A stretch of DNA of 28,118 nucleotides from a virus. The DNA lies in the IMG/VR virus record IMGVR_UViG_3300010401_000073, positions 1 to 28,118 of that record. One strand, 5' to 3'. A model generated the notes under the pieces. That model saw only the letters and a list, made by a program, of their open reading frames with translations, searched no databases and was not told the origin of the DNA. Positions 11,029 to 25,862 of this stretch are shown here, piece after piece; the stretch's first letter is position 1; each line of letters starts with the position of its first letter. Made by a program: the position numbers and the translations under genes.

Positions 11029-11240
11029 AACGTTATCATCGTTTCACTGCACCAATTATACAAGGTTCTGGATATGTTCTGCTATTGATTGCAATGCGAG
11101 CAATGAGGCAACCAGTATTGAATATTTACCTCGATATGTTTGTAACATGGTGTTGTTTAAGCGCAGCATTTTTATTTTCAGCAGCAAAAGAAGCAGACAA
11201 AAACCAGAAGAACACAAATGAATCCACAACAACAAGCTGA
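11025..11240 (+). CDS. Small membrane protein with two hydrophobic segments
   Basis: A 71-residue protein with a good ribosome site (GGAGA directly before ATG). Hydrophobic stretches around residues 10-26 (IIQGSGYVLLLIAMRAM) and 35-54 (YLDMFVTWCCLSAAFLFSAA) suggest two membrane passes, followed by a polar tail. It overlaps the CoaB-like gene by 23 bp. Role unknown; small membrane proteins are common in phage early regions. Confidence 0.6.
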   Translation: MKRYHRFTAPIIQGSGYVLLLIAMRAMRQPVLNIYLDMFVTWCCLSAAFLFSAAKEADKNQKNTNESTTTS

Positions 11241-12084
11241 TTTGCGTGACGCAATTGAAAAGTCATATAGAGCCAACATACCAAAAAAGGTTATCGTAAT
11301 AGGTGGAGGCACGTTCTCTCTCGTGCGCAATCACATGGCTCTTTCTGCACCAGCATTTGGAACAACAGCCAGAGCCTTAGCAACATTCAGTTATCATCGT
11401 TTTCACGAAATGAAAACTGAGTTGATTCTAACGAAAATGGCGGACCATAATTCTGAACTGTTTACGAATGCGCACATAAAAGACCTTATTGAAAAACTCA
11501 AAGAGACCTATTCAACAAAGGTTGTCTTTTTCAATGTCGCCCTTTGTGATTACGATGGGAAAATCGGTGATGTTGTTAGTGGTAAATATGCTGAACGATT
11601 GGAGACAAAAAATGGGCCGCAAACAATGATTCTGACACCTGCAGAAAAGATTGTTTCGACCATTCGTGAAGGACGCAAAGATATTTTTCTGGTGTCATTT
11701 AAGACAACTTGCAATGCGTCCGAACAAGAGATGTTTGAAAAAGGATTGGCGTTGCTTAAAAATTCAAGCTCCAATCTCGTGCTGGTAAACGATACCAAAA
11801 CACGAATGAACATGATTGTGACTCCGGAAGAAGCTACGTATTCTGTTACAAAAGATAGAAACGCCGCTCTCGAACAACTGGTCGATATTGCATGGTATCG
11901 CAGTCATCTTACGTTCACACAATCTACTGTTGTCGAAGGAACGCCAGTGTCTTGGGATTCTCCAGAAGTTCCAGAAAGCTTGCGCACTATCGTCAATCAC
12001 TGCATCAGTCAAAATGCTTACAAGGTGTTTAACGGAGCAACTGTCGGTCACTTTGCTTGTAAGATAAGTGATACTGAATTTTGA
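11218..12084 (+). CDS. CoaB/DFP-like protein, C-terminus entering an aldolase-like domain
   Basis: A 288-residue protein. Residues ~22-225 resemble the phosphopantothenoylcysteine synthetase (CoaB, DFP) fold: a glycine-rich start KKVIVIGGGTFSLVRNH, the strand VVFFNVALCDYDGKIGD corresponding to the family's 'aaavaDyrp' element, LTPAEKIVSTIREGRKD, FLVSFKTTC, and LVLVNDTKTRMNMIV matching the conserved asparagine-aspartate region. CoaB joins cysteine to phosphopantothenate in CoA synthesis. The last ~40 residues (PESLRTIVNHCISQNAYKVF, GATVGHFACKISDTEF) look like the beginning of a class II aldolase/adducin domain that continues in the next frame. Whether it is catalytically competent is unknown. 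Confidence 0.6.
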   Translation: MNPQQQADLRDAIEKSYRANIPKKVIVIGGGTFSLVRNHMALSAPAFGTTARALATFSYHRFHEMKTELILTKMADHNSELFTNAHIKDLIEKLKETYSTKVVFFNVALCDYDGKIGDVVSGKYAERLETKNGPQTMILTPAEKIVSTIREGRKDIFLVSFKTTCNASEQEMFEKGLALLKNSSSNLVLVNDTKTRMNMIVTPEEATYSVTKDRNAALEQLVDIAWYRSHLTFTQSTVVEGTPVSWDSPEVPESLRTIVNHCISQNAYKVFNGATVGHFACKISDTEF

Positions 12085-12563
12085 CATCCATTAGAAAAAG
12101 CAATTTCAACAATCTTGCAACAACCGGATTGGTTCGTGTCAAGACTGATGGTCCAGATACCGTTCTTGCTTATGGTGCCAAACCATCTGTTGGAGGACAA
12201 TCACAACGAACAATATTTCGTGACCACGAAGGGTTTGATTGTATCGTGCATTTTCATTGTCCGTTAAAAACAAATGGAGAACTCATTCATACAATCTATA
12301 GAGGAGAAGATGTAACGTTTAACAGAAGCCCAATTGGAGAAGTTATTGCTATTGTCTCTCAACGCGAAGTTGAATGCGGTTCTCATCAGTGTGGAAAAAA
12401 CACCTCAAATAATTTGACAGATTATGGAGACTTCAAAGTCGTTATGCTCGATAACCATGGTCCCAATATTGTGTTCAAACGAAGCATTGACCCTCAAATC
12501 ATAATCGAATTCATCGAACGCAATTTTGATTTAGGAAAGAAAACAGGAGGTTACAATTTATGA
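12081..12563 (+). CDS. Class II aldolase/adducin-like protein (major part)
   Basis: A 160-residue protein reading from TTG 12081, which overlaps the upstream stop (TTGA). Zinc-ligand-like signatures of the class II aldolase fold are visible: IVHFHCPLK (HxH) near residue 55, and VVMLDNHGPNIVF, matching the family's 'vLLaNHG'. The expected catalytic glutamate region reads SVGGQSQRT and appears changed, so activity is doubtful. The first strands of this fold are encoded at the end of the previous frame, so the two may be one protein joined by a -1 shift at TTTTGA, a decayed fusion, or two coupled subunits. Confidence 0.55.
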   Translation: MTSIRKSNFNNLATTGLVRVKTDGPDTVLAYGAKPSVGGQSQRTIFRDHEGFDCIVHFHCPLKTNGELIHTIYRGEDVTFNRSPIGEVIAIVSQREVECGSHQCGKNTSNNLTDYGDFKVVMLDNHGPNIVFKRSIDPQIIIEFIERNFDLGKKTGGYNL

Positions 12564-18596: not shown

Positions 18597-20063
18597 CTAA
18601 GCATTTACGTAGGATTCTGAGTCTCCAGTCGGTTCTGTAAAATCCTCCACAACTAATCCTTCATTGCGTTGAATCATTCGACTGATAGTGTTGTCATTGA
18701 CACCTGACCTTTCTGTTTCAAATACAATTTTCTGATTTGAGTTTATAAATTTCATGTGCTGGAAAAATCGCAATAATTCTTCACCTTTCACAGTTTTTAT
18801 TGGAGTTATACCAATATGAGAATAGTAATCTCCCGGCTCTGCGGTTATCGGATAATTTCCATCATCTTCATCATCTGGGCGTTGTCTAAAATACTTTTTA
18901 TCTAACACCACAACCAAACCATATTGTTTAAGCTCTTGAATAGTAACCTTGCGAAAGTCCTTATGAAGTTTTTTTGCAATGTGAAAAACAATAGCTGTCA
19001 ATACAGAATGTAAATGGTTGTAGTCAGCGGCAAACACGAGTTCAGATAAATCATCAACGTCCACATCATTCCCGTATGCGTCACGAATAAATTCACCAAC
19101 ACTCGGCTCAAGACCTGTCGCCAAAATACTTGATTCCTTGTCTATGGTTGAACCGTGGTATAAAAGTTCTTCGTCAACATCATTTCCCGTATTCAATTCT
19201 TCATACAATGTGTCTCCTAAACTTTCATCATAAGAATATGTTTTCTTGTTAACAGTTGCATGTTTCACCCAAGACAAATCATGAATGGAAATCTTATCAA
19301 ACACTAAAACGGAATCCCAGAAAGAACCTTCTAATACACGTTTGCATTTATGCTCCGATAACATTTTATTTAATGGCATGGCAACAACAACGCCATTATC
19401 GCCTCCTCCTGAAAAATATACAGCATATCCCAAATTCGGTGTAAACCAAACAGCCGGTTCTTCTTCATCATGTATTATGTCTTTTCTTGGATACAAATAT
19501 CCTTCTTCTTTTATGCGATTCCAATTCTCTATCCTGATTCCTCGATATACAAGTTTTTGATTGTTTGGCTCGAATCCTTCCGTCATCCTCTGAATCATTC
19601 GGCTAATGGTATTATCATTGACACCATACTGCTTTGCCATTTTGATAATTGGAGTACCAGCTTTATACCTCGATACGATTCTTGATACTTCATTTGGTTT
19701 GAATACTCTCTTCTTTGTTGATTCGTCACTCATTTTGTAATTGACACCGCCACTCTGTTCATTGTATCCGTAAGGATAAACCGTATTGAACTTCTTGACC
19801 ATCTCTTCTTCCTTCTTGTACATCTCTTTCTCAGAAGGAGCAGTAGCTACTAAATTTATTTTGAACTTCTCCGGACCCTCTTCTCTCATCGCTTTGTACA
19901 ATGGAGAATTCCTGATACCAGAATTGTAAACGTGATGTTGCATTCTACGCTCAATCTCTTCTCTCGTAACACCAATATACCTCTTTCCATCTACTGTGTT
20001 CGTAATACAATAGATGTTATATCGAGGAGATGTTCTTTCAAGAAGAGCTTTAAATTTCATCAT
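18597..20063 (-). CDS. Multidomain tagged protein: GIY-YIG, HTH and two ART-like regions
   Basis: A 488-residue protein, ATG coupled to the upstream stop (ATGA). Residues 1-10, MMKFKALLER, are a short tag ending in L-L-E. Residues ~14-105 are GIY-YIG-like (YNIYCITNTVDGKRYIGVT, RRM..H, E near 85). Residues ~121-160 form a helix-turn-helix (KMAKQYGVNDNTISRMIQR). Residues ~168-275 (KLVYRGIRIENWNRIKEEGY, AVWFTPNLGYAVYFSGG) and ~300-440 (LLYHGSTIDKESSILATGLE) resemble two ADP-ribosyltransferase-like regions. Residues 453-467 repeat GVNDNTISRMIQR. A head-packaged effector is inference by analogy with T4 Alt. Confidence 0.6.
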   Translation of the reverse strand: MMKFKALLERTSPRYNIYCITNTVDGKRYIGVTREEIERRMQHHVYNSGIRNSPLYKAMREEGPEKFKINLVATAPSEKEMYKKEEEMVKKFNTVYPYGYNEQSGGVNYKMSDESTKKRVFKPNEVSRIVSRYKAGTPIIKMAKQYGVNDNTISRMIQRMTEGFEPNNQKLVYRGIRIENWNRIKEEGYLYPRKDIIHDEEEPAVWFTPNLGYAVYFSGGGDNGVVVAMPLNKMLSEHKCKRVLEGSFWDSVLVFDKISIHDLSWVKHATVNKKTYSYDESLGDTLYEELNTGNDVDEELLYHGSTIDKESSILATGLEPSVGEFIRDAYGNDVDVDDLSELVFAADYNHLHSVLTAIVFHIAKKLHKDFRKVTIQELKQYGLVVVLDKKYFRQRPDDEDDGNYPITAEPGDYYSHIGITPIKTVKGEELLRFFQHMKFINSNQKIVFETERSGVNDNTISRMIQRNEGLVVEDFTEPTGDSESYVNA

Positions 20064-20593
20064 CTTACAATTTTCCTTGGCATTGTGTTAAGTTTATCGA
20101 CATTGTAAATACAAAGCCACAACCCTTGATAAAATGGCGGGTCATCTTTTCCCAATATAAATCCAACATATCCCAGAAGAGGAATTCCCAAGGCCCACAA
20201 ATCTAAATTGAAATGTGCCGTTCCTCTTTTCACATAACTTTCAATATCCTTATCGGATAAACTAGAAAGCTTTCCGTATTCTCTTGCATCCTTTTCAATC
20301 TCCGGAATAGTCAACAGTTTCTTGTCCATTGCAATGTAACTCTTCTCTGTGCGAAGATTGGCTATTTTCAATCCACTCATTTCCATCTCAATAAGAACGG
20401 TTGACTTGTTGAATGTATGAGGAGGATTCGCAAACCATATTCCTTTTCCGTAAAGTCTGTAACTGCCTTCCGATATCTCTGTGTCAAGAGAAAATCCATT
20501 GGACATTATATGCTTCGCATTCTTCATGGAAGTAGCATGATACCAAACATTTGGTTTTATAGATTCTTCCAATAGGTCTTTAAACTTCATCAT
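20060..20593 (-). CDS. Tagged ADP-ribosyltransferase-like protein
   Basis: A 177-residue protein from ATG 20593 (MMKFKDLLEESIKPNVWYHA), chosen because it matches the tag of the next gene and follows AAGGAAAGAG; an upstream start at 20644 would overlap the previous gene. After the tag, NVWYHATSMKNAKHIMSNGF and LYGKGIWFANPPHTF resemble the 'YHgTs..a..I...GF' and 'G.GIyfa' elements of ART-fold enzymes; catalytic competence cannot be judged. The L-L-E in the tag fits prohead-protease cleavage. Coupled downstream by ATGA. A head-packaged, injected host modifier is inference. Confidence 0.58.
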   Translation of the reverse strand: MMKFKDLLEESIKPNVWYHATSMKNAKHIMSNGFSLDTEISEGSYRLYGKGIWFANPPHTFNKSTVLIEMEMSGLKIANLRTEKSYIAMDKKLLTIPEIEKDAREYGKLSSLSDKDIESYVKRGTAHFNLDLWALGIPLLGYVGFILGKDDPPFYQGLWLCIYNVDKLNTMPRKIVR

Positions 20594-20613
20594 CCTAACT
20601 CTTTCCTTGAACT

Positions 20614-21024
20614 TCAATACGCTTGAATGATTTTCGTTTCCCATTGTGGATGTTCTTTAGAGAGTCGTTCTATTTCTGACAATGCCTCTTCCTCTGTCAT
20701 GTGTTTGGCGTATTGCTTTTTGTGTGCTAAAACGTCTCCACCAAATTTGTGAAGCAATTGAAACCTTGATAGTTTGTTGGTCTTGATAGCTATCAATTTG
20801 TTTCTGGATGGTCCATCGAACACTCCTTCCTTCAACAAGTCTTTGAACTTCATTATCAAACATTCCTCAATAGGCTTGTCAGGTATTCGGAATCGAAGGA
20901 GCGGCTTTCCATTTATCGTGAAATCACCTTTCTCATTCTTACCAATAGTCTTCACGACCACTTTCATGTTCTTGAATCTACCGCCTAGTATCGTATCTCC
21001 AATTTTGATGGGAATCTTTATCAT
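20614..21024 (-). CDS. Protein with internal MKFKDLLKE tag
   Basis: A 136-residue protein in two parts. Residues 1-56 (MIKIPIKIGDTILGGRFKNM, VVVKTIGKNEKGDFTINGK) resemble a short beta-barrel-like phage protein I recall as 'GDxILxGRFKNK'; that is memory. Residues 57-66 are MKFKDLLKEG, the same tag that starts the next two genes, here internal but beginning with methionine, so a second internal start is possible. The rest (SRFQLLHKFGGDVLAHKKQY, TEEEALSEIERLSKEH) is helical. First gene of the leftward cassette. Confidence 0.6.
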   Translation of the reverse strand: MIKIPIKIGDTILGGRFKNMKVVVKTIGKNEKGDFTINGKPLLRFRIPDKPIEECLIMKFKDLLKEGVFDGPSRNKLIAIKTNKLSRFQLLHKFGGDVLAHKKQYAKHMTEEEALSEIERLSKEHPQWETKIIQAY

Positions 21025-21290: not shown

Positions 21291-21439
21291 TTTTGAATGG
21301 TAAATACAGGCAAACCCAAGGTGTTTTAATGGCAATACAGGAAAAGTTAGGACGGTTTTGGAATGGTAAACACAAGACATGGGTATGGTCTGTGTATACT
21401 CCGCGTTGATACAACACACAATTTGAATGGTAAACACAT
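21291..21439 (+). repeat. Motif B cluster, four copies
   Basis: Copies at 21291-21310 (TTTTGAATGGTAAATACAGG), 21324-21341 (diverged, TTTTAATGGCAATACAGG), 21356-21375 (with GGTAAACACAAG) and 21421-21439, the last running straight into the ATG at 21438. The consensus is TTTTGAATGGTAAAYACARG. Always plus strand and between genes or at gene ends. It could be a promoter class, a translation signal or a recombination module. Confidence 0.8.
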
Positions 21440-21641
21440 GGACATGACGACGAATCTCTACGGAAGTGATGACATATTCATTTCAAATCCTAACGAATTG
21501 ATGATTTCAGAAGAGTCATCATCGGACCCGAATTATATAAAACACGTTAATTGTGACGGAGCAAGATTTCACGTGGTTAGCTGGTCAACAAATGGAACCC
21601 ATTGTTCTGAACCACGTTGTATCCTAAACAAAAGAGATTGA
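21438..21641 (+). CDS. Small unknown protein directly behind motif B
   Basis: A 67-residue protein from ATG 21438 (MDMTTNLYGSDDIFISNPNE); an in-frame start at 21363 would translate motif B and is less likely. Acidic and serine-rich middle, then VNCDGARFHVVSWSTNGTHC and two more cysteines. Its stop TGA is part of the next motif B copy (TTGAACGGTAATACAAGG). Family unknown. Confidence 0.5.
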   Translation: MDMTTNLYGSDDIFISNPNELMISEESSSDPNYIKHVNCDGARFHVVSWSTNGTHCSEPRCILNKRD

Positions 21642-21655
21642 ACGGTAATACAAGG
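21638..21655 (+). repeat. Motif B copy at gene end
   Basis: TTGAACGGTAATACAAGG, with the TGA of the motif serving as the stop codon of the preceding gene. About 75 bp before promoter copy 5. Confidence 0.65.
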
Positions 21656-21728
21656 TAGAAACGCAACAAACAAGAATTGGGGACGTTTTACTTGGAGATG
21701 GCCCCTATCCTAAAAAGATAAGGACAAT

Positions 21729-21760
21729 TTGAACTTCCTTTTAGAATTCTCAGTTGTATT
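21729..21760 (+). promoter_or_regulatory. Recurrent phage promoter, copy 5
   Basis: TTGAAC at 21729-21734 and TTGTATT at 21754-21760, 19 bp apart. Its -10 element lies inside the left arm of a 15-bp inverted repeat, and the next gene starts at 21792. Confidence 0.65.
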
Positions 21761-21785
21761 AGATGAATGATAATACAACTGAGAA
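21747..21785. promoter_or_regulatory. 15-bp perfect inverted repeat over the promoter -10 (operator-like)
   Basis: TTCTCAGTTGTATTA (21747-21761) and TAATACAACTGAGAA (21771-21785) are exact reverse complements around a 9-nt spacer. The left arm contains the TTGTATT element of promoter copy 5, and the right arm ends 6 bp before the ATG at 21792. It could be a repressor operator, or in read-through RNA a hairpin that hides the start region. Confidence 0.65.
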
Positions 21786-21791
21786 TCAGCG

Positions 21792-21995
21792 ATGAAAAGC
21801 AACTGGATGGACATCAATATTGACCTACTAAAACGAGCGTCGGGAGATGAATCGTTATCCATTTATGGACAAAATGGGGTGTTTGCAGTCGTTCAAAATA
21901 GAGACAACACGCACTTCGCCCTGTCAAGTTACATGTCTAAAAAATCTTTACATGTATGGATTAGCGGTTTTATTGAAGGGTTAAAATACAAGTGA
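21792..21995 (+). CDS. Small unknown protein under operator-like repeat
   Basis: A 67-residue protein (MKSNWMDINIDLLKRASGDE) with a central beta region (SIYGQNGVFAVVQNRDNTHF) and a helical end (SKKSLHVWISGFIEGLKYK). No Shine-Dalgarno is visible; the start is 6 bp after the inverted repeat. It is the only gene between promoter copies 5 and 6. Family unknown. Confidence 0.55.
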   Translation: MKSNWMDINIDLLKRASGDESLSIYGQNGVFAVVQNRDNTHFALSSYMSKKSLHVWISGFIEGLKYK

Positions 21996-22009
21996 GAACG
22001 TGTGATGAT

Positions 22010-22041
22010 TTGAACTTTCATTCCTGAACCTTGGTTGTATT
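22010..22041 (+). promoter_or_regulatory. Recurrent phage promoter, copy 6 (drives ncRNA)
   Basis: TTGAAC at 22010-22015 and TTGTATT at 22035-22041, 19 bp apart. Downstream there is no gene before the terminator at 22255, only the structured RNA. Confidence 0.65.
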
Positions 22042-22055
22042 AGATGATAACAAGA

Positions 22056-22092
22056 GAGTGGTAATACACACAATTTGAATGGTAAATACAGG
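22056..22092 (+). repeat. Two motif B copies in ncRNA 5' region
   Basis: GAGTGGTAATACAC (22056-22069, partial) and ATTTGAATGGTAAATACAGG (22073-22092). The first can pair with the TGTATTA of the promoter just upstream. The second ends at the closing stem of the structured RNA. Confidence 0.65.
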
Positions 22093-22254
22093 AAGCATCC
22101 GCTCTACTAACACACAACGACAGATTTTAAGAGTTTCGCTCCGCGAAAGTAGCAGTATGTAGCTGCGAGCTTATGTGCCCGGATGCTTCATTGCAGTCTT
22201 CGATTTCGGTCGAACTAACATGCCGAAGCAAATGAACGGCAAATTACCATTCGA

Positions 22255-22279
22255 GGGCTGGCAACACCAGCCCTTTTTT
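22255..22279 (+). terminator. Rho-independent terminator
   Basis: GGGCTGG (22255-22261), loop CAACA, CCAGCCC (22267-22273), then six T. A textbook intrinsic terminator closing the ncRNA unit and lying just before promoter copy 7. Confidence 0.9.
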
Positions 22280-22290
22280 ATTGCCCCTTT

Positions 22291-22322
22291 TTGAACTTCG
22301 AAAGAACTATCCCTGTTGATAA
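22291..22322 (+). promoter_or_regulatory. Recurrent phage promoter, copy 7
   Basis: TTGAAC at 22291-22296 and TTGATAA at 22316-22322, 19 bp apart; the -10 element is the most diverged of the eight. It drives the paired small genes at 22399 and 22613 and possibly the TnpB-like gene. Confidence 0.55.
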
Positions 22323-22325
22323 TAA

Positions 22326-22376
22326 GGGAATGGGTAAAAACAAGACCACTGAACTATTGCTAAATGGTAATACAGG
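22326..22376 (+). repeat. Two motif B copies before the first paralogue
   Basis: GGGAATGGGTAAAAACAAG (22326-22344) and TAAATGGTAATACAGG (22361-22376). The frame is open through them, but as motif B is untranslated elsewhere they probably form the leader of the gene starting at 22399. Confidence 0.6.
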
Positions 22377-22398
22377 TGCAAGTAGTTATGTAATAAAA

Positions 22399-22569
22399 AT
22401 GGTACACATTGACTTGAAAGTTCATAAGGAAGGACTTGTCGAAAGGTCCGGACTTGTTAGTACAAAAGTGATTGATGATAACGGAACCGGAACATACGTT
22501 GAAGATATGTTTCGAGGACTTGAGGGCAAGCGGGTTCGAGTCATCATCGAAGTAATTTCGGAAGAGTGA
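22399..22569 (+). CDS. Small paralogous protein A
   Basis: A 56-residue protein from ATG 22399 (MVHIDLKVHKEGLVERSGLV). In-frame starts at 22330 and 22291 would translate motif B copies and promoter DNA. The end TYVEDMFRGLEGKRVRVIIE matches EIVEDWFDGLDYGQHVRITI in the next gene, so the two are paralogues. TGA is followed directly by a motif B copy. A small beta-rich protein, function unknown. Confidence 0.58.
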   Translation: MVHIDLKVHKEGLVERSGLVSTKVIDDNGTGTYVEDMFRGLEGKRVRVIIEVISEE

Positions 22570-22588
22570 TTTTGAATGGTAATACAAG
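22570..22588 (+). repeat. Motif B copy between paralogues
   Basis: TTTTGAATGGTAATACAAG directly after the stop of paralogue A and 25 bp before the start of paralogue B. Confidence 0.75.
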
Positions 22589-22612
22589 AACTTAGAACAT
22601 CGACAAGTTTGA

Positions 22613-22873
22613 ATGACACAAATTGACCTGACGATAACGCATGCCCCGGTTCCATCTTTATTAATCACTTTGGTACCAACAAATCCGGACCTTTCAAGAG
22701 TAATTGAAGGAGATGTTTATGACTATGAAATACAAATAACGGATGGTCCTTATCGAAAAATCACAGAAATCGTGGAAGATTGGTTCGATGGACTCGATTA
22801 CGGACAACACGTTCGAATCACTATTGAACCTATTGGTTCAATAAGTTTGAATGGTAAACACAAGAAAGTCTGA
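22613..22873 (+). CDS. Small paralogous protein B
   Basis: An 86-residue protein (MTQIDLTITHAPVPSLLITL), with VEDWFDGLDYGQHVRITIEP matching paralogue A. The expected stop before motif B is missing, so the frame reads through the copy as SLNGKHKKV before ending. This supports a tandem duplication of a gene-plus-motif unit. Function unknown; it precedes the TnpB-like gene by 47 bp. Confidence 0.58.
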   Translation: MTQIDLTITHAPVPSLLITLVPTNPDLSRVIEGDVYDYEIQITDGPYRKITEIVEDWFDGLDYGQHVRITIEPIGSISLNGKHKKV

Positions 22874-22902
22874 GACCGACCTTACAGAATGGTAAACACA
22901 AG
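22846..22902 (+). repeat. Two motif B copies before the TnpB-like gene
   Basis: GTTTGAATGGTAAACACAAG-like copy at 22846-22864, inside the 3' end of paralogue B, and CAGAATGGTAAACACAAG at about 22885-22902, 18 bp before the TnpB-like start. Confidence 0.75.
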
Positions 22903-22920
22903 AACCCGCAACCTTGAGAT

Positions 22921-24348
22921 ATGAAACACAGTAAAGTAGCAAAGAACAATCGAGTCTATCGTTATCGTCTTTATCCGACGAAGGAGCAGGAGCACATTTT
23001 CGCTCAATACTTTGGTGTTACTCGATGGGTTTGGAATTGGGCTTTGGCAGAACGTGAGCGAGTCTATGAGGAAAAGAAGGCTTGGACCAAGGAACAGAAA
23101 GAGGCCCGTCAGCTTCAATACGATATCAACAAGGCTTTACAGAAGGAACTGAAAGCCTTAAAGGATAAGGAAAAGGAGTTGACACCGGAACAGCAGGAAG
23201 CTCACAGTCTTCAACATGAGGAAGAGTGTAAGCTTATCAAAGAAAAACTGGTGTACTTCGATGATGACCTCAGTGCATTTAGCCAGACGGTCAATTTCAC
23301 TCACATAAAGAACACAGAAGAGTTTCAATGGTTGAAAGACATTGATTCTCATGTTCCGGCCTTTGTTATCAATCATCTTGATGAGGCTTTTAAGCACGCT
23401 TACAGGCGTTTTAAGGAAGGAAAACGAGGAAGGGCTATTGGTTGGCCTAGGTTCAAAAAGAAAACGGTTTTTGGCATCAAGTCCTTTACGACCAGAGGTA
23501 TTGCGTTGCTTCCTGATACCAAGAAGATAATCTCAGGGACAGCAACTGTAACATGTCGAGCTTTACGTATTCCAAGAATTGGCAAGGTCTGGATTAATCT
23601 AGACCGGGAACCAATTGGAACGTTAGCTCGTGTAACAATCAAGAAGGAGAAGTCTGGAAAGTACACAGCTATCATTCTTGCTACAACACCTATTGAAGAT
23701 TCACCTGAAAAGGAACCAAAGTCTATTGACCCTGAAAAGGTTGTAGGATTAAATTGCGGATTAAGACGACTTGCGACATTACACAATGGAGAATTCATTC
23801 CTAATCCGGAATACTATGGAAAAGAAATCAAGCGCCTTCGTTTCCTTCAGCGTAAAGTAAGTCGATTGGAACGGTATCGAGCACACGACAAAAATGGCAA
23901 GCCAATTGAAAAGCCTTCTAAGGCTCTTATCAAGGCACAACTGAGATACAACAAAGCCATGGAAAAGGTCGTGGATAAGAGAGAACGCTATGCTCATAGT
24001 ATCTCTAAGAGAATCGTCAATGATTTTGATGTTATCGCACTGGAAACGTGGAGTCCAGCAAAACTCATTCGACATAATACAAAAGCATTATCGTTTAGAA
24101 TTGCTGATGCAGGATGGGGTAAGCTTAGACAACAATTGGAATACAAAGCTAAACGCATGGGAAAGATTGTTATTAAGCTCGATGAGTTTGAACCTCTTAC
24201 AAAGGTCCATCACAAATGCGGCAAATCATTGAAAGTCAATTATTCATCATCGTCAGTAAAATGTCACTTCTGTAACGAGATGGTCGATATTGACATCAAT
24301 GCAGCTATCAATGGAAGAACACGAGCACTGGAAACTCTATCCAACTAA
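22921..24348 (+). CDS. TnpB-family protein with altered RuvC-I residue
   Basis: A 475-residue IS605-type TnpB/OrfB homologue. The N-terminus YRYRLYPTKEQEHIFAQYFG, with RWVWNWALA, and WPRFKKKTVFGIKSF are family hallmarks. TnpB is an RNA-guided RuvC nuclease and ancestor of Cas12. RuvC-I reads VVGLNCGLRRLATL, with N278 (codon AAT 23752-23754) where family members carry aspartate. RuvC-II glutamate E375 (VIALETWS) and the RuvC-III aspartates (VDIDINAAING, D456/D458) remain. Zinc knuckles are HHKC (first cysteine replaced) and CHFC. Residues ~55-110 are an extra charged helical insertion. No TnpA lies nearby, and the next gene starts 6 bp after the stop. A nuclease-impaired, TldR-like regulator is inference. 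Confidence 0.88.
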   Translation: MKHSKVAKNNRVYRYRLYPTKEQEHIFAQYFGVTRWVWNWALAERERVYEEKKAWTKEQKEARQLQYDINKALQKELKALKDKEKELTPEQQEAHSLQHEEECKLIKEKLVYFDDDLSAFSQTVNFTHIKNTEEFQWLKDIDSHVPAFVINHLDEAFKHAYRRFKEGKRGRAIGWPRFKKKTVFGIKSFTTRGIALLPDTKKIISGTATVTCRALRIPRIGKVWINLDREPIGTLARVTIKKEKSGKYTAIILATTPIEDSPEKEPKSIDPEKVVGLNCGLRRLATLHNGEFIPNPEYYGKEIKRLRFLQRKVSRLERYRAHDKNGKPIEKPSKALIKAQLRYNKAMEKVVDKRERYAHSISKRIVNDFDVIALETWSPAKLIRHNTKALSFRIADAGWGKLRQQLEYKAKRMGKIVIKLDEFEPLTKVHHKCGKSLKVNYSSSSVKCHFCNEMVDIDINAAINGRTRALETLSN

Positions 24349-24353
24349 AATAC

Positions 24354-24647
24354 ATGGCACAAGGAATCACACCAAAGGAATTCAAACCGTTTGATGCTTA
24401 CTTGAGAACAAATGATTCGTTCGGGTTCATTTTAACGAGGGTTGAAGACTTAAGAATGAATACTGGACTTAGCATTCATTCTGTGATGCTCAGTTACGAC
24501 AACCAGTGGCATTTTTGCAATGAAATATACCCACTTACTAATGGGAAGAACAAGGAGATAATTGAAACTATCCTCAAGCTTCAAGGCGAATTAATCAGCT
24601 ATCAACCTTCAATCAAAAGCGTCACTTACGAGTTTGAGAATATTTGA
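24354..24647 (+). CDS. Small unknown protein after TnpB-like gene
   Basis: A 97-residue protein (MAQGITPKEFKPFDAYLRTN) starting 6 bp after the TnpB-like stop. It has beta-rich SIHSVMLSYDNQWHFCNEIY, then a helical KNKEIIETILKLQGEL. Its tight placement argues that the TnpB-like gene sits in an operon rather than in a discrete transposon. Stop overlaps the next start (TGATG). Function unknown. Confidence 0.65.
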   Translation: MAQGITPKEFKPFDAYLRTNDSFGFILTRVEDLRMNTGLSIHSVMLSYDNQWHFCNEIYPLTNGKNKEIIETILKLQGELISYQPSIKSVTYEFENI

Positions 24648-24820
24648 TGGAAACAGGTATGACATTCAAAAGGAATTTTGATAGCATGAAAGAAATCATC
24701 ATCGAGATTGAAGGATTGCGAGATTCCATTGATGACCACATAACAACTACTGACATTCATCAGGCGCTCAACGATTTGGTTCAAAAACTTCGTGATGATG
24801 AAAAGATACAAATGGGTTAA
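24647..24820 (+). CDS. 57-residue helical mini-protein
   Basis: ATG 24647 (TGATG overlap) encodes METGMTFKRNFDSMKEIIIE, then IEGLRDSIDDHITTTDIHQA and LNDLVQKLRDDEKIQMG, a small two-helix, coiled-coil-like protein. It fills the otherwise empty stretch between its neighbours. Family unknown. Confidence 0.6.
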   Translation: METGMTFKRNFDSMKEIIIEIEGLRDSIDDHITTTDIHQALNDLVQKLRDDEKIQMG

Positions 24821-24824
24821 ATCA

Positions 24825-25034
24825 ATGACTTCAACAGAAAGAAAATCGGAAGCAATTGCTAGACAGTTAGTAAAAGTCCTCAAGAAAATTGAAAGCTTCG
24901 ATGGTGATGCAGACATGATTTTCACTGATGCTTTAGTTTTTGCTCATGATGAAAAAGAGCTTAAGAGGTTTATCAATCACGTTTTGAAGTATTATGACAT
25001 CGACCCTTATGAAAAGAATGTGGATAGTAATTGA
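24825..25034 (+). CDS. Small helical protein
   Basis: A 69-residue protein from ATG 24825 (MTSTERKSEAIARQLVKVLK), 4 bp after the preceding stop; an in-frame GTG/ATG run at 24792 is possible but overlaps. Two or three helices with an acidic middle (FDGDADMIFTDALVFAHDEK). No family recognised. Confidence 0.58.
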   Translation: MTSTERKSEAIARQLVKVLKKIESFDGDADMIFTDALVFAHDEKELKRFINHVLKYYDIDPYEKNVDSN

Positions 25035-25104
25035 AACGTGTTTGGCGATTTTTGGAGCTTGGGCATTCGTCAATGACATCATCAATCTTTATGGCACACT
25101 TTGA
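25018..25104 (+). CDS. Possible 28-residue membrane peptide
   Basis: ATG 25018 opens MWIVIETCLAIFGAWAFVND, then IINLYGTL and TGA, a single hydrophobic helix typical of phage membrane peptides. It overlaps the preceding gene by 17 bp and the following gene by up to 32 bp. It could instead be a coupling frame. Confidence 0.35.
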   Translation: MWIVIETCLAIFGAWAFVNDIINLYGTL

Positions 25105-25444
25105 AAAAACCAAGGTTGTAGAAACAGTCTTCATTATTCGGAAAAACGGAGAGAATCGAAGCTTTCTTTTTTCTGAATTACCCAAGTGGCTACTCGATTC
25201 TGACCAGATACTTATCGAATCAAATCCCGATTATTGCTTTACTGAACTTTCCATCATCCGTGAACGACCTGAAACAGATGAAGAACTTCTAATACGAACG
25301 GAAACGATTCAGAAGAACATAATGAAGTCACAGTTAAAGGATTACGAGCGATATCTAGAATTGAAGAAGAGGTATGAATCTGATGATTGGAAAGACTTCA
25401 ATTTGGGTGAAGACCTGCTCAGGAAAATGGACCCTGCAATTTGA
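25073..25444 (+). CDS. Unknown protein ending in motif B
   Basis: A 123-residue protein if ATG 25073 is used (MTSSIFMAHFEKTKVVETVF); ATG 25091 (MAHFEKTK) and TTG 25031 are alternatives, and no clear ribosome site decides. Beta-rich start (VVETVFIIRKNGENRSFLFS), then a charged helical C-terminal half (KDYERYLELKKRYESDDWKD). Its TGA is the TGA of the motif B copy at 25439. Function unknown. Confidence 0.6.
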   Translation: MTSSIFMAHFEKTKVVETVFIIRKNGENRSFLFSELPKWLLDSDQILIESNPDYCFTELSIIRERPETDEELLIRTETIQKNIMKSQLKDYERYLELKKRYESDDWKDFNLGEDLLRKMDPAI

Positions 25445-25457
25445 ATGGTAAACACAA
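25439..25457 (+). repeat. Motif B copy, rightmost
   Basis: AATTTGAATGGTAAACACAA, providing the stop codon of the preceding gene and lying 58 bp before the start at 25515. The only strong copy to the right of the TnpB-like gene. Confidence 0.75.
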
Positions 25458-25514
25458 TATGAACGAGACTGGGATTCAAAACTAGTCATCATCAATAATC
25501 CTTATAAAAGCACC

Positions 25515-25862
25515 ATGAGTTCAACTGAAATGATGGCCGAATTTGTTCAAGCAGCCTGTGAACGATATTTAGCTGCCAGAGAACAACGCATTGCCAAAGA
25601 ATCTGAGGAAGCTATTGGAACCATTCTTAAACAGAAGACCATCTTTGGAAAGCTAAAATACAAAACACGAGAAGAAGCTGCCAAAGAATTCTATCGAGGT
25701 GTTTGGGTCGATTGGATAGTAAGTTCTGGCCACTCCGTTACAAAAAAGATTGATAACCTTCTATTGCTTTGCAAGCTGTCTACGACTGGAATAGTAAACA
25801 TAGGTTCAGATGATGTCGCTCTTATAGATAAATGGAGTAGAGATGCAAACAACAATCCCTGA
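25515..25862 (+). CDS. Unknown helical protein
   Basis: A 115-residue protein (MSSTEMMAEFVQAACERYLA), mostly helical, with KTREEAAKEFYRGVWVDWIV and a C-terminal IDNLLLLCKLSTTGIVNIGS. It overlaps the next gene by 20 bp. No motif allows a functional call. Confidence 0.62.
   Translation: MSSTEMMAEFVQAACERYLAAREQRIAKESEEAIGTILKQKTIFGKLKYKTREEAAKEFYRGVWVDWIVSSGHSVTKKIDNLLLLCKLSTTGIVNIGSDDVALIDKWSRDANNNP

What the first reader, a model, noticed from the sequence alone, without database searches (positions are those of the whole stretch)
22921..24348. Phage TnpB homologue with RuvC-I Asp replaced by Asn: possible TldR-like RNA-guided regulator
The sequence shows a full-length TnpB-type protein in which the first RuvC catalytic aspartate is asparagine (N278, GLNCGL) while E375 and D456/D458 remain; one zinc cysteine is also histidine. 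Loss of RuvC residues is the hallmark of the established TldR class (nuclease-dead TnpB repressors). There is no TnpA gene, the next gene begins 6 bp after the stop, and repeated motif-B elements precede it. Domestication is therefore more likely than an active insertion sequence. A relocated active site or a nicking or otherwise altered activity is an alternative.
Basis: partly seen in the sequence, partly recalled or inferred. Interest (0 to 1): 0.85.

Follow-up and report, generated by a model that had tools for sequence, protein, structure and literature searches.

The report
Phage TnpB with a broken nuclease
A T4-like phage carries a full-length relative of the RNA-guided DNA cutter TnpB whose cutting site has lost an otherwise universal residue and whose usual guide RNA cannot be seen, so it has probably stopped cutting DNA; whether it became an RNA-guided switch or is a fading relic is open, because no close relative exists in the databases searched.

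Summary
ORF 22921-24348 (475 aa, +) is a TnpB (NF040570, 221 bits; AF2 pLDDT 89; ISDra2 TnpB Z 31.6). N278 sits exactly in the RuvC-I Asp column; E375, D456 and D458 remain; one zinc Cys is His430. The changes are strong outliers: Asp in 88/88 other phage TnpBs; an Asn-version search of all IMG/VR finds no TnpB, the Asp control 113. The window protein changes 10 of 31 near-invariant columns (others: median 0, maximum 5), 8 in the nuclease lobe, whose identity, given an ordinary recognition lobe, is the lowest of 147. So 'nuclease-dead TnpB' is well supported (inferred; no assay).

'TldR-like regulator' is only partly supported. The canonical guide-RNA site is unstructured, the weakest of 59 loci. 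A TAM-contact Gln is also changed. Surprise: the most structured RNA of the 28 kb lies inside tnpB's 5' half. No orthologue exists to test selection. Best guess: a dead, phage-embedded TnpB kept as a nucleic-acid binder; a decaying relic is a serious rival.

The parts
22921..24348 (+). TnpB-family ORF, 475 aa, RuvC-I Asp replaced by Asn (N278)
23752..23754 (+). Codon for N278, at the RuvC-I catalytic Asp position (ISDra2 D191)
24043..24045 (+). Codon for E375, RuvC-II Glu retained (ISDra2 E278)
24286..24294 (+). Codons D456-I457-D458: RuvC-III Asp retained (D458 = ISDra2 D361); the otherwise invariant Arg is Ile
24208..24273 (+). TNB zinc finger H430-C433...C448-C451 (one Cys to His)
23080..23274 (+). 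REC-domain insertion (residues about 54-118; helices 57-86 and 89-109), absent from ISDra2 and most relatives
23101..23250 (+). Most strongly folded RNA of the contig, two hairpins inside the coding insertion; excess survives codon-preserving shuffles
22846..22903 (+). Two copies of the repeated phage gene-start element (TTTGAATGGTAAACACAAGA) just upstream of tnpB
22253..22275 (+). Strong terminator-like hairpin that closes the upstream unit; tnpB lies in the next + strand cluster
24354..24647 (+). Next ORF (97 aa, no family, weak coding signal), start 5 nt after the tnpB stop, where a right end and guide RNA would normally lie

Best explanation
A captured TnpB that has lost RuvC catalysis and was kept as a gene of a T4-like phage. 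Most likely it folds as TnpB, binds an RNA through its WED and RuvC surfaces and binds nucleic acid without cutting it, i.e. it works like a TldR or dead Cas12 (a roadblock to transcription or a competitor of other RNA-guided enzymes). Shown: TnpB homology, confident TnpB fold model, loss of the RuvC-I Asp and of neighbouring near-invariant residues, retention of several guide-scaffold contact residues, position among phage genes with phage expression elements. Inferred: no cleavage; binding; any regulatory role. Not found: a guide RNA at the canonical 3' position, so if a guide exists it is unstructured by this test, encoded elsewhere, or supplied in trans.
For: Asp at RuvC-I in 88/88 relatives, Asn only here; Asn-type consensus in all IMG/VR: 34 stretches, 0 TnpB, against 113 TnpB of 120 for the Asp type, capped. 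10/31 near-invariant columns changed, 8 in RuvC/TNB; the two in WED/REC are conservative. Nuclease-lobe identity lowest of 147 given an ordinary recognition-lobe identity, z -4.3. Yet E375, D456, D458, C433, C448, C451 and the fold remain. Scaffold contacts kept: R229, R311, R315, H359; heteroduplex contact Y408 kept (contacts from PMC10097598). The open 475-codon frame is unlikely under long neutral drift (P of no stop 0.02 at 36% change). Base composition near that of the phage (GC 41% against 39%) and phage gene-start elements in front. Precedents: TldR (PMC13418256) and Cas12 subtypes with inactivated RuvC that act by binding (PMC12669027).
Against: No structured RNA at the 3' end. Two scaffold contacts (R232 to L316, K263 to S360), the TAM-reading Gln (A147) and the Trp that stacks on the first base pair (R412) are changed. 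Long terminal branch in both lobes. A single sequence: no orthologue, so no dN/dS, no conserved guide, no partner gene. 28 of 29 related T4-like records searched lack any TnpB match, so it is not a core gene.
Confidence: 0.42

Rival explanations
1. Decaying relic: a tnpB that landed in the phage, lost catalysis and its guide RNA, and is drifting towards loss; it has no function.
For: Longest branch of the set in both lobes; losses in catalysis, TAM reading and scaffold contacts together; no guide-RNA signal; absent from nearly all related records; 4 of 63 viral TnpB matches show in-frame stops or a frameshift, so decay is common.
Against: Frame intact over 475 codons; under neutral change of 36% of the nuclease lobe only 2% of simulations keep it open, 24% at 10% change; changes concentrated in the nuclease lobe; E375, D456, D458 and three zinc Cys kept.
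Confidence: 0.33
2. Repurposed without an RNA guide: the TnpB fold now binds DNA or its own mRNA directly (for example autoregulation through the folded RNA in its 5' half).
For: No 3' guide scaffold; strong, codon-independent RNA structure in the 5' half of its own gene, a pattern opposite to most other viral tnpB genes.
Against: Several guide-scaffold contacts are retained; coding-region structure can have other causes; no covariation data.
Confidence: 0.12
3. Still an active nuclease or nickase despite Asn, or with a relocated catalytic carboxylate.
For: E375 and D458 are retained; a subset of related viral TnpBs lacks the RuvC-II Glu in the aligned column yet keeps Asp at I and III (14 of 147), so rearranged sites may occur in the superfamily.
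Against: The Asp is invariant in every relative examined; Asn at this position inactivates RNase-H-fold nucleases such as RuvC and RNase H (established knowledge, not tested here); the DRD Arg and other nuclease-lobe residues are lost as well.
Confidence: 0.08
4. Sequencing or assembly error makes an ordinary TnpB look dead.
For: A single metagenomic contig; reads not available.
Against: At least ten independent near-invariant positions differ in an intact frame.
Confidence: 0.03

Closest known systems
TldR (TnpB-like nuclease-dead repressors)
   Same: TnpB fold, RuvC catalytic residue lost, no TnpA beside it, phage-borne as in FliC-associated TldR prophages (PMC13418256).
   Different: No guide-RNA scaffold found downstream; no flagellin, oppF or csrA neighbour recognised; T4-like phage rather than a prophage; no clade of relatives.
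ISDra2 TnpB (PDB 8exa, 8h1j, 8bf8)
   Same: Same fold over the whole length (Z 31.6, 2.4 A over 338 residues, 29% identity); RuvC-II Glu, RuvC-III Asp and some guide-RNA contacts.
   Different: D191 to N278, R360 to I457, C331 to H430, Q80 to A147, W313 to R412; extra REC insertion of about 60 residues; no right end or wRNA signature.
RuvC-inactivated Cas12 (V-C, V-M and others)
   Same: Independent loss of RuvC catalysis with a binding-only mode as the likely outcome (PMC12669027).
   Different: No CRISPR array seen near the gene; TnpB-sized protein.
Cas12u4 / Cas12n group (RdCas12n, 9j09)
   Same: PADLOC Cas12u4 profile matches well (E 1.5e-57); RdCas12n also has a long REC insertion at about the same place (alignment).
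   Different: RdCas12n keeps the RuvC-I Asp and is CRISPR-linked.

Membership tests
TnpB superfamily | HTH/REC, WED, RuvC and TNB domains of the IS605 OrfB type | tested here: met
Active TnpB nuclease | Complete RuvC triad D-E-D | tested here: not met
   N278 in place of Asp; E375 and D458 present
Active TnpB nuclease | wRNA scaffold over the 3' end of tnpB and the right end | tested here: not met
   no fold signal, min z -0.6 against a median of -3.05 in 58 controls (also 74). The fold test is indirect: 12 of 58 controls also do not pass z < -2
TldR | RuvC nuclease inactivated by substitution | tested here: met
TldR | Conserved guide RNA encoded next to the gene | tested here: inconclusive
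   no fold signal and no Rfam match, but Rfam also finds none in 20 control loci and there are no relatives for covariation
TldR | Stable association with a non-transposon partner gene across relatives | not testable with these tools
   no orthologue in IMG/VR, INPHARED or the GTDB contigs
TldR | RNA-guided DNA binding and transcriptional repression without cleavage | not testable with these tools
   needs experiment
Mobile IS200/IS605 element | TnpA (PF01797) in the element | tested here: not met
   0 in the record; weak evidence, since 31/40 control contigs also lack it
Type V CRISPR effector | CRISPR array next to the gene | tested here: not met
   repeats in 20.9-25.6 kb are irregularly spaced gene-start elements, not an array; the rest of the contig was not scanned for arrays

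The most novel reading that the evidence does not exclude
A nuclease-dead TnpB domesticated by a T4-like phage whose guide or scaffold RNA has moved from the 3' end into the 5' half of its own gene (the folded REC-insertion segment, 23101-23250), giving a self-contained RNA-guided or self-binding regulator.
Probability: 0.04. Interest if true: 0.85.

Novelty: new variant of a known kind. Interest (0 to 1): 0.42.

Why it matters
TldRs described so far come from prophage and chromosomal settings with partner genes. A RuvC-dead TnpB kept by a T4-like phage would extend RNA-guided, non-cutting control to this phage type, and its missing canonical guide RNA would ask what RNA, if any, such a protein uses. 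If it proves a relic, it is a snapshot of how captured TnpBs die, with the nuclease lobe changing first.

Tried and rejected
Absence of TnpA as evidence for domestication: rejected by control (31/40 contigs with intact TnpB lack it). Short distance to the next gene as evidence: 6/58 controls have an ORF start within 10 nt of the stop. Motif B as transposon ends, a CRISPR-like array or a feature of tnpB: rejected, it precedes several small + strand genes; an exact search of IMG/VR gives only five single matches in contigs without further similarity. Rfam search for a guide RNA: nothing found, but no power, since 20 control TnpB loci give only tRNAs. Close relatives: protein scans in IMG/VR and GTDB contigs, 'DIDxNAA' pattern, Asn-type RuvC-I pattern, phage DNA, terminase, and TnpB inside 29 related T4-like records (only a different TnpB in LR756508). 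Genome groups around the host could not be drawn for a virus record. The main TldR and TnpB-classification papers were not held. 'The recognition lobe is unaffected' was considered and toned down: its mean identity is ordinary, but its terminal branch is also the longest and Q80 is changed.

Full report
What is there. The window is a complete IMG/VR record of 28,118 bases, a fragment of what is probably a larger phage genome, with T4-like terminase and portal genes on the - strand. The terminase is at most about 35-38% identical to those of Flavobacterium phage immuto, Microcystis phage Mel-JY01 and many IMG/VR contigs. ORF 22921-24348 (+) encodes a 475-aa TnpB. An AlphaFold2 model built on 60 window and IMG/VR sequences has mean pLDDT 89.4 and matches ISDra2 TnpB over its whole length (Z 31.6, 338 residues, 2.4 A).

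The catalytic site. In alignments with eight phage TnpBs, 88 viral and phage TnpBs and ISDra2, N278 falls on the RuvC-I Asp, E375 on the RuvC-II Glu and D458 on the RuvC-III Asp; H430 replaces a zinc Cys. I457 replaces the Arg of 'DRD', which is invariant in the 68 non-redundant relatives. To ask whether Asn is a hidden common form, I scanned all of IMG/VR for a back-translated G-x-N-x-G-x-K-x-[LF]-[AV] core: 34 stretches, none of them a TnpB. The pattern is stricter than the window's own motif (GLNCGLRR), so it samples the form rather than covering it fully.

Where the protein has changed. In a leave-one-out test on 69 sequences the window protein departs at 10 of 31 columns that are at least 95% conserved; other sequences have a median of 0 and a maximum of 5. 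Eight of the ten lie in RuvC or the zinc domain; the two in WED/REC are conservative. Across 147 non-redundant viral TnpBs its recognition-lobe identity is ordinary (34th percentile), while its nuclease-lobe identity, given that, is the lowest (z -4.3). Two cautions: the terminal branch is the longest in both lobes (1.35 against a maximum of 1.21 in the N part, 1.51 against 0.90 in the C part), and part of the comparison set was chosen by its RuvC-I motif.

Functional contacts. Using the contacts reported for ISDra2 (PMC10097598), guide-scaffold contacts R229, R311, R315 and H359 and heteroduplex contact Y408 are kept; R232 to L316, K263 to S360, W313 to R412 and the TAM-reading Q80 to A147 are changed. 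Y52 and S56, which read the TAM in ISDra2, lie where a REC insertion of about 60 residues sits here. RNA binding is thus plausible, while TAM reading is altered or weakened.

Guide RNA. TnpB guide RNAs come from the 3' end of tnpB and the right end (PMC10097598). Fold z-scores around the stop codon were computed for the window and 58 control loci: control median of the best z -3.05, 79% below -2; the window has -0.6, the weakest of all. Rfam has no power here (0 of 20 control loci). In contrast, the most folded RNA of the whole contig on either strand is 23101-23240 (+), z -7.2, inside the REC-insertion coding segment. The excess survives codon-preserving shuffles (0 of 300), and tnpB has 5 of 22 windows below -3 against 3 of 190 in other phage genes. 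Other viral tnpB genes more often carry the structure in the 3' half. Without relatives there is no covariation test, and the meaning of this structure is unknown.

Setting. tnpB follows a strong terminator-like hairpin at 22253-22275 and two copies of an element (TTTGAATGGTAAACACAAGA) that also precedes other small + strand genes; 14 copies in all, none on the - strand. The next ORF starts 5 nt after the stop. The coding signal of tnpB is weakly positive and its GC is close to that of the phage. So the gene appears wired into phage expression.

Function or relic. A simulation of unselected change in the nuclease lobe keeps the frame open in 24% of runs at 10% residue change and 2% at 36%; the observed loss at near-invariant nuclease-lobe columns (8 of 22) corresponds to the latter if all of it were neutral, ignoring indels. 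This favours retained function but is not proof, because part of the divergence may predate inactivation. Decay is common among viral TnpBs: 4 of 63 matches have stops or a frameshift. No orthologue was found in IMG/VR, GTDB contigs, INPHARED or 29 related T4-like records, so selection cannot be measured.

Verdict. Nuclease-dead TnpB: well supported by sequence, inferred as to chemistry. Works like a TldR: plausible (about 0.4). Is a TldR: not established; one defining feature is met, the guide RNA was not found, the others are untestable here.

Noticed in passing
window 23101-23250 (+) and 23521-23690: Strong, codon-independent RNA structure inside the 5' half of tnpB; the first is the strongest fold of the contig on either strand.
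   Followed up: partly
window 22441-22500 and 22636-22695: 60-nt inverted repeat, 82% complementary, spanning two small + strand genes whose products look paralogous (MVHIDL... and MTQIDL...).
   Followed up: no
window 21295-25802 (+): 14 copies of a GAATGGTAA(A)YACA element, two length variants, often 5-40 nt upstream of small gene starts; probably a phage expression signal, type unknown.
   Followed up: partly
window 18597-20063 (-) and 20060-20644 (-): GIY-YIG plus HTH homing-type protein with a possible ADP-ribosyltransferase-like part (weak PARP hits) and a second copy of 'GVNDNTISRMIQR' near its C end; the adjacent gene has a weak PARP hit too.
   Followed up: no
window 11218-12084 and 12081-12563 (+): Overlapping genes with CoaB-like (DFP) and class II aldolase domains, an unusual metabolic pair for a phage.
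   Followed up: no
loci L220, L237, L242, L246, L261, L268, L272, L275, L278, L288, L294, L297, L306, L323: 14 of 147 viral TnpBs have Gly in the aligned RuvC-II Glu column (motif like VVGNVSP) with Asp at RuvC-I and III; probably a class with a rearranged active site.
   Followed up: no
window 21746-21786: Perfect 16-nt inverted repeat around a 9-nt loop that overlaps a variant of the gene-start element; strongly folded on both strands.
   Followed up: no
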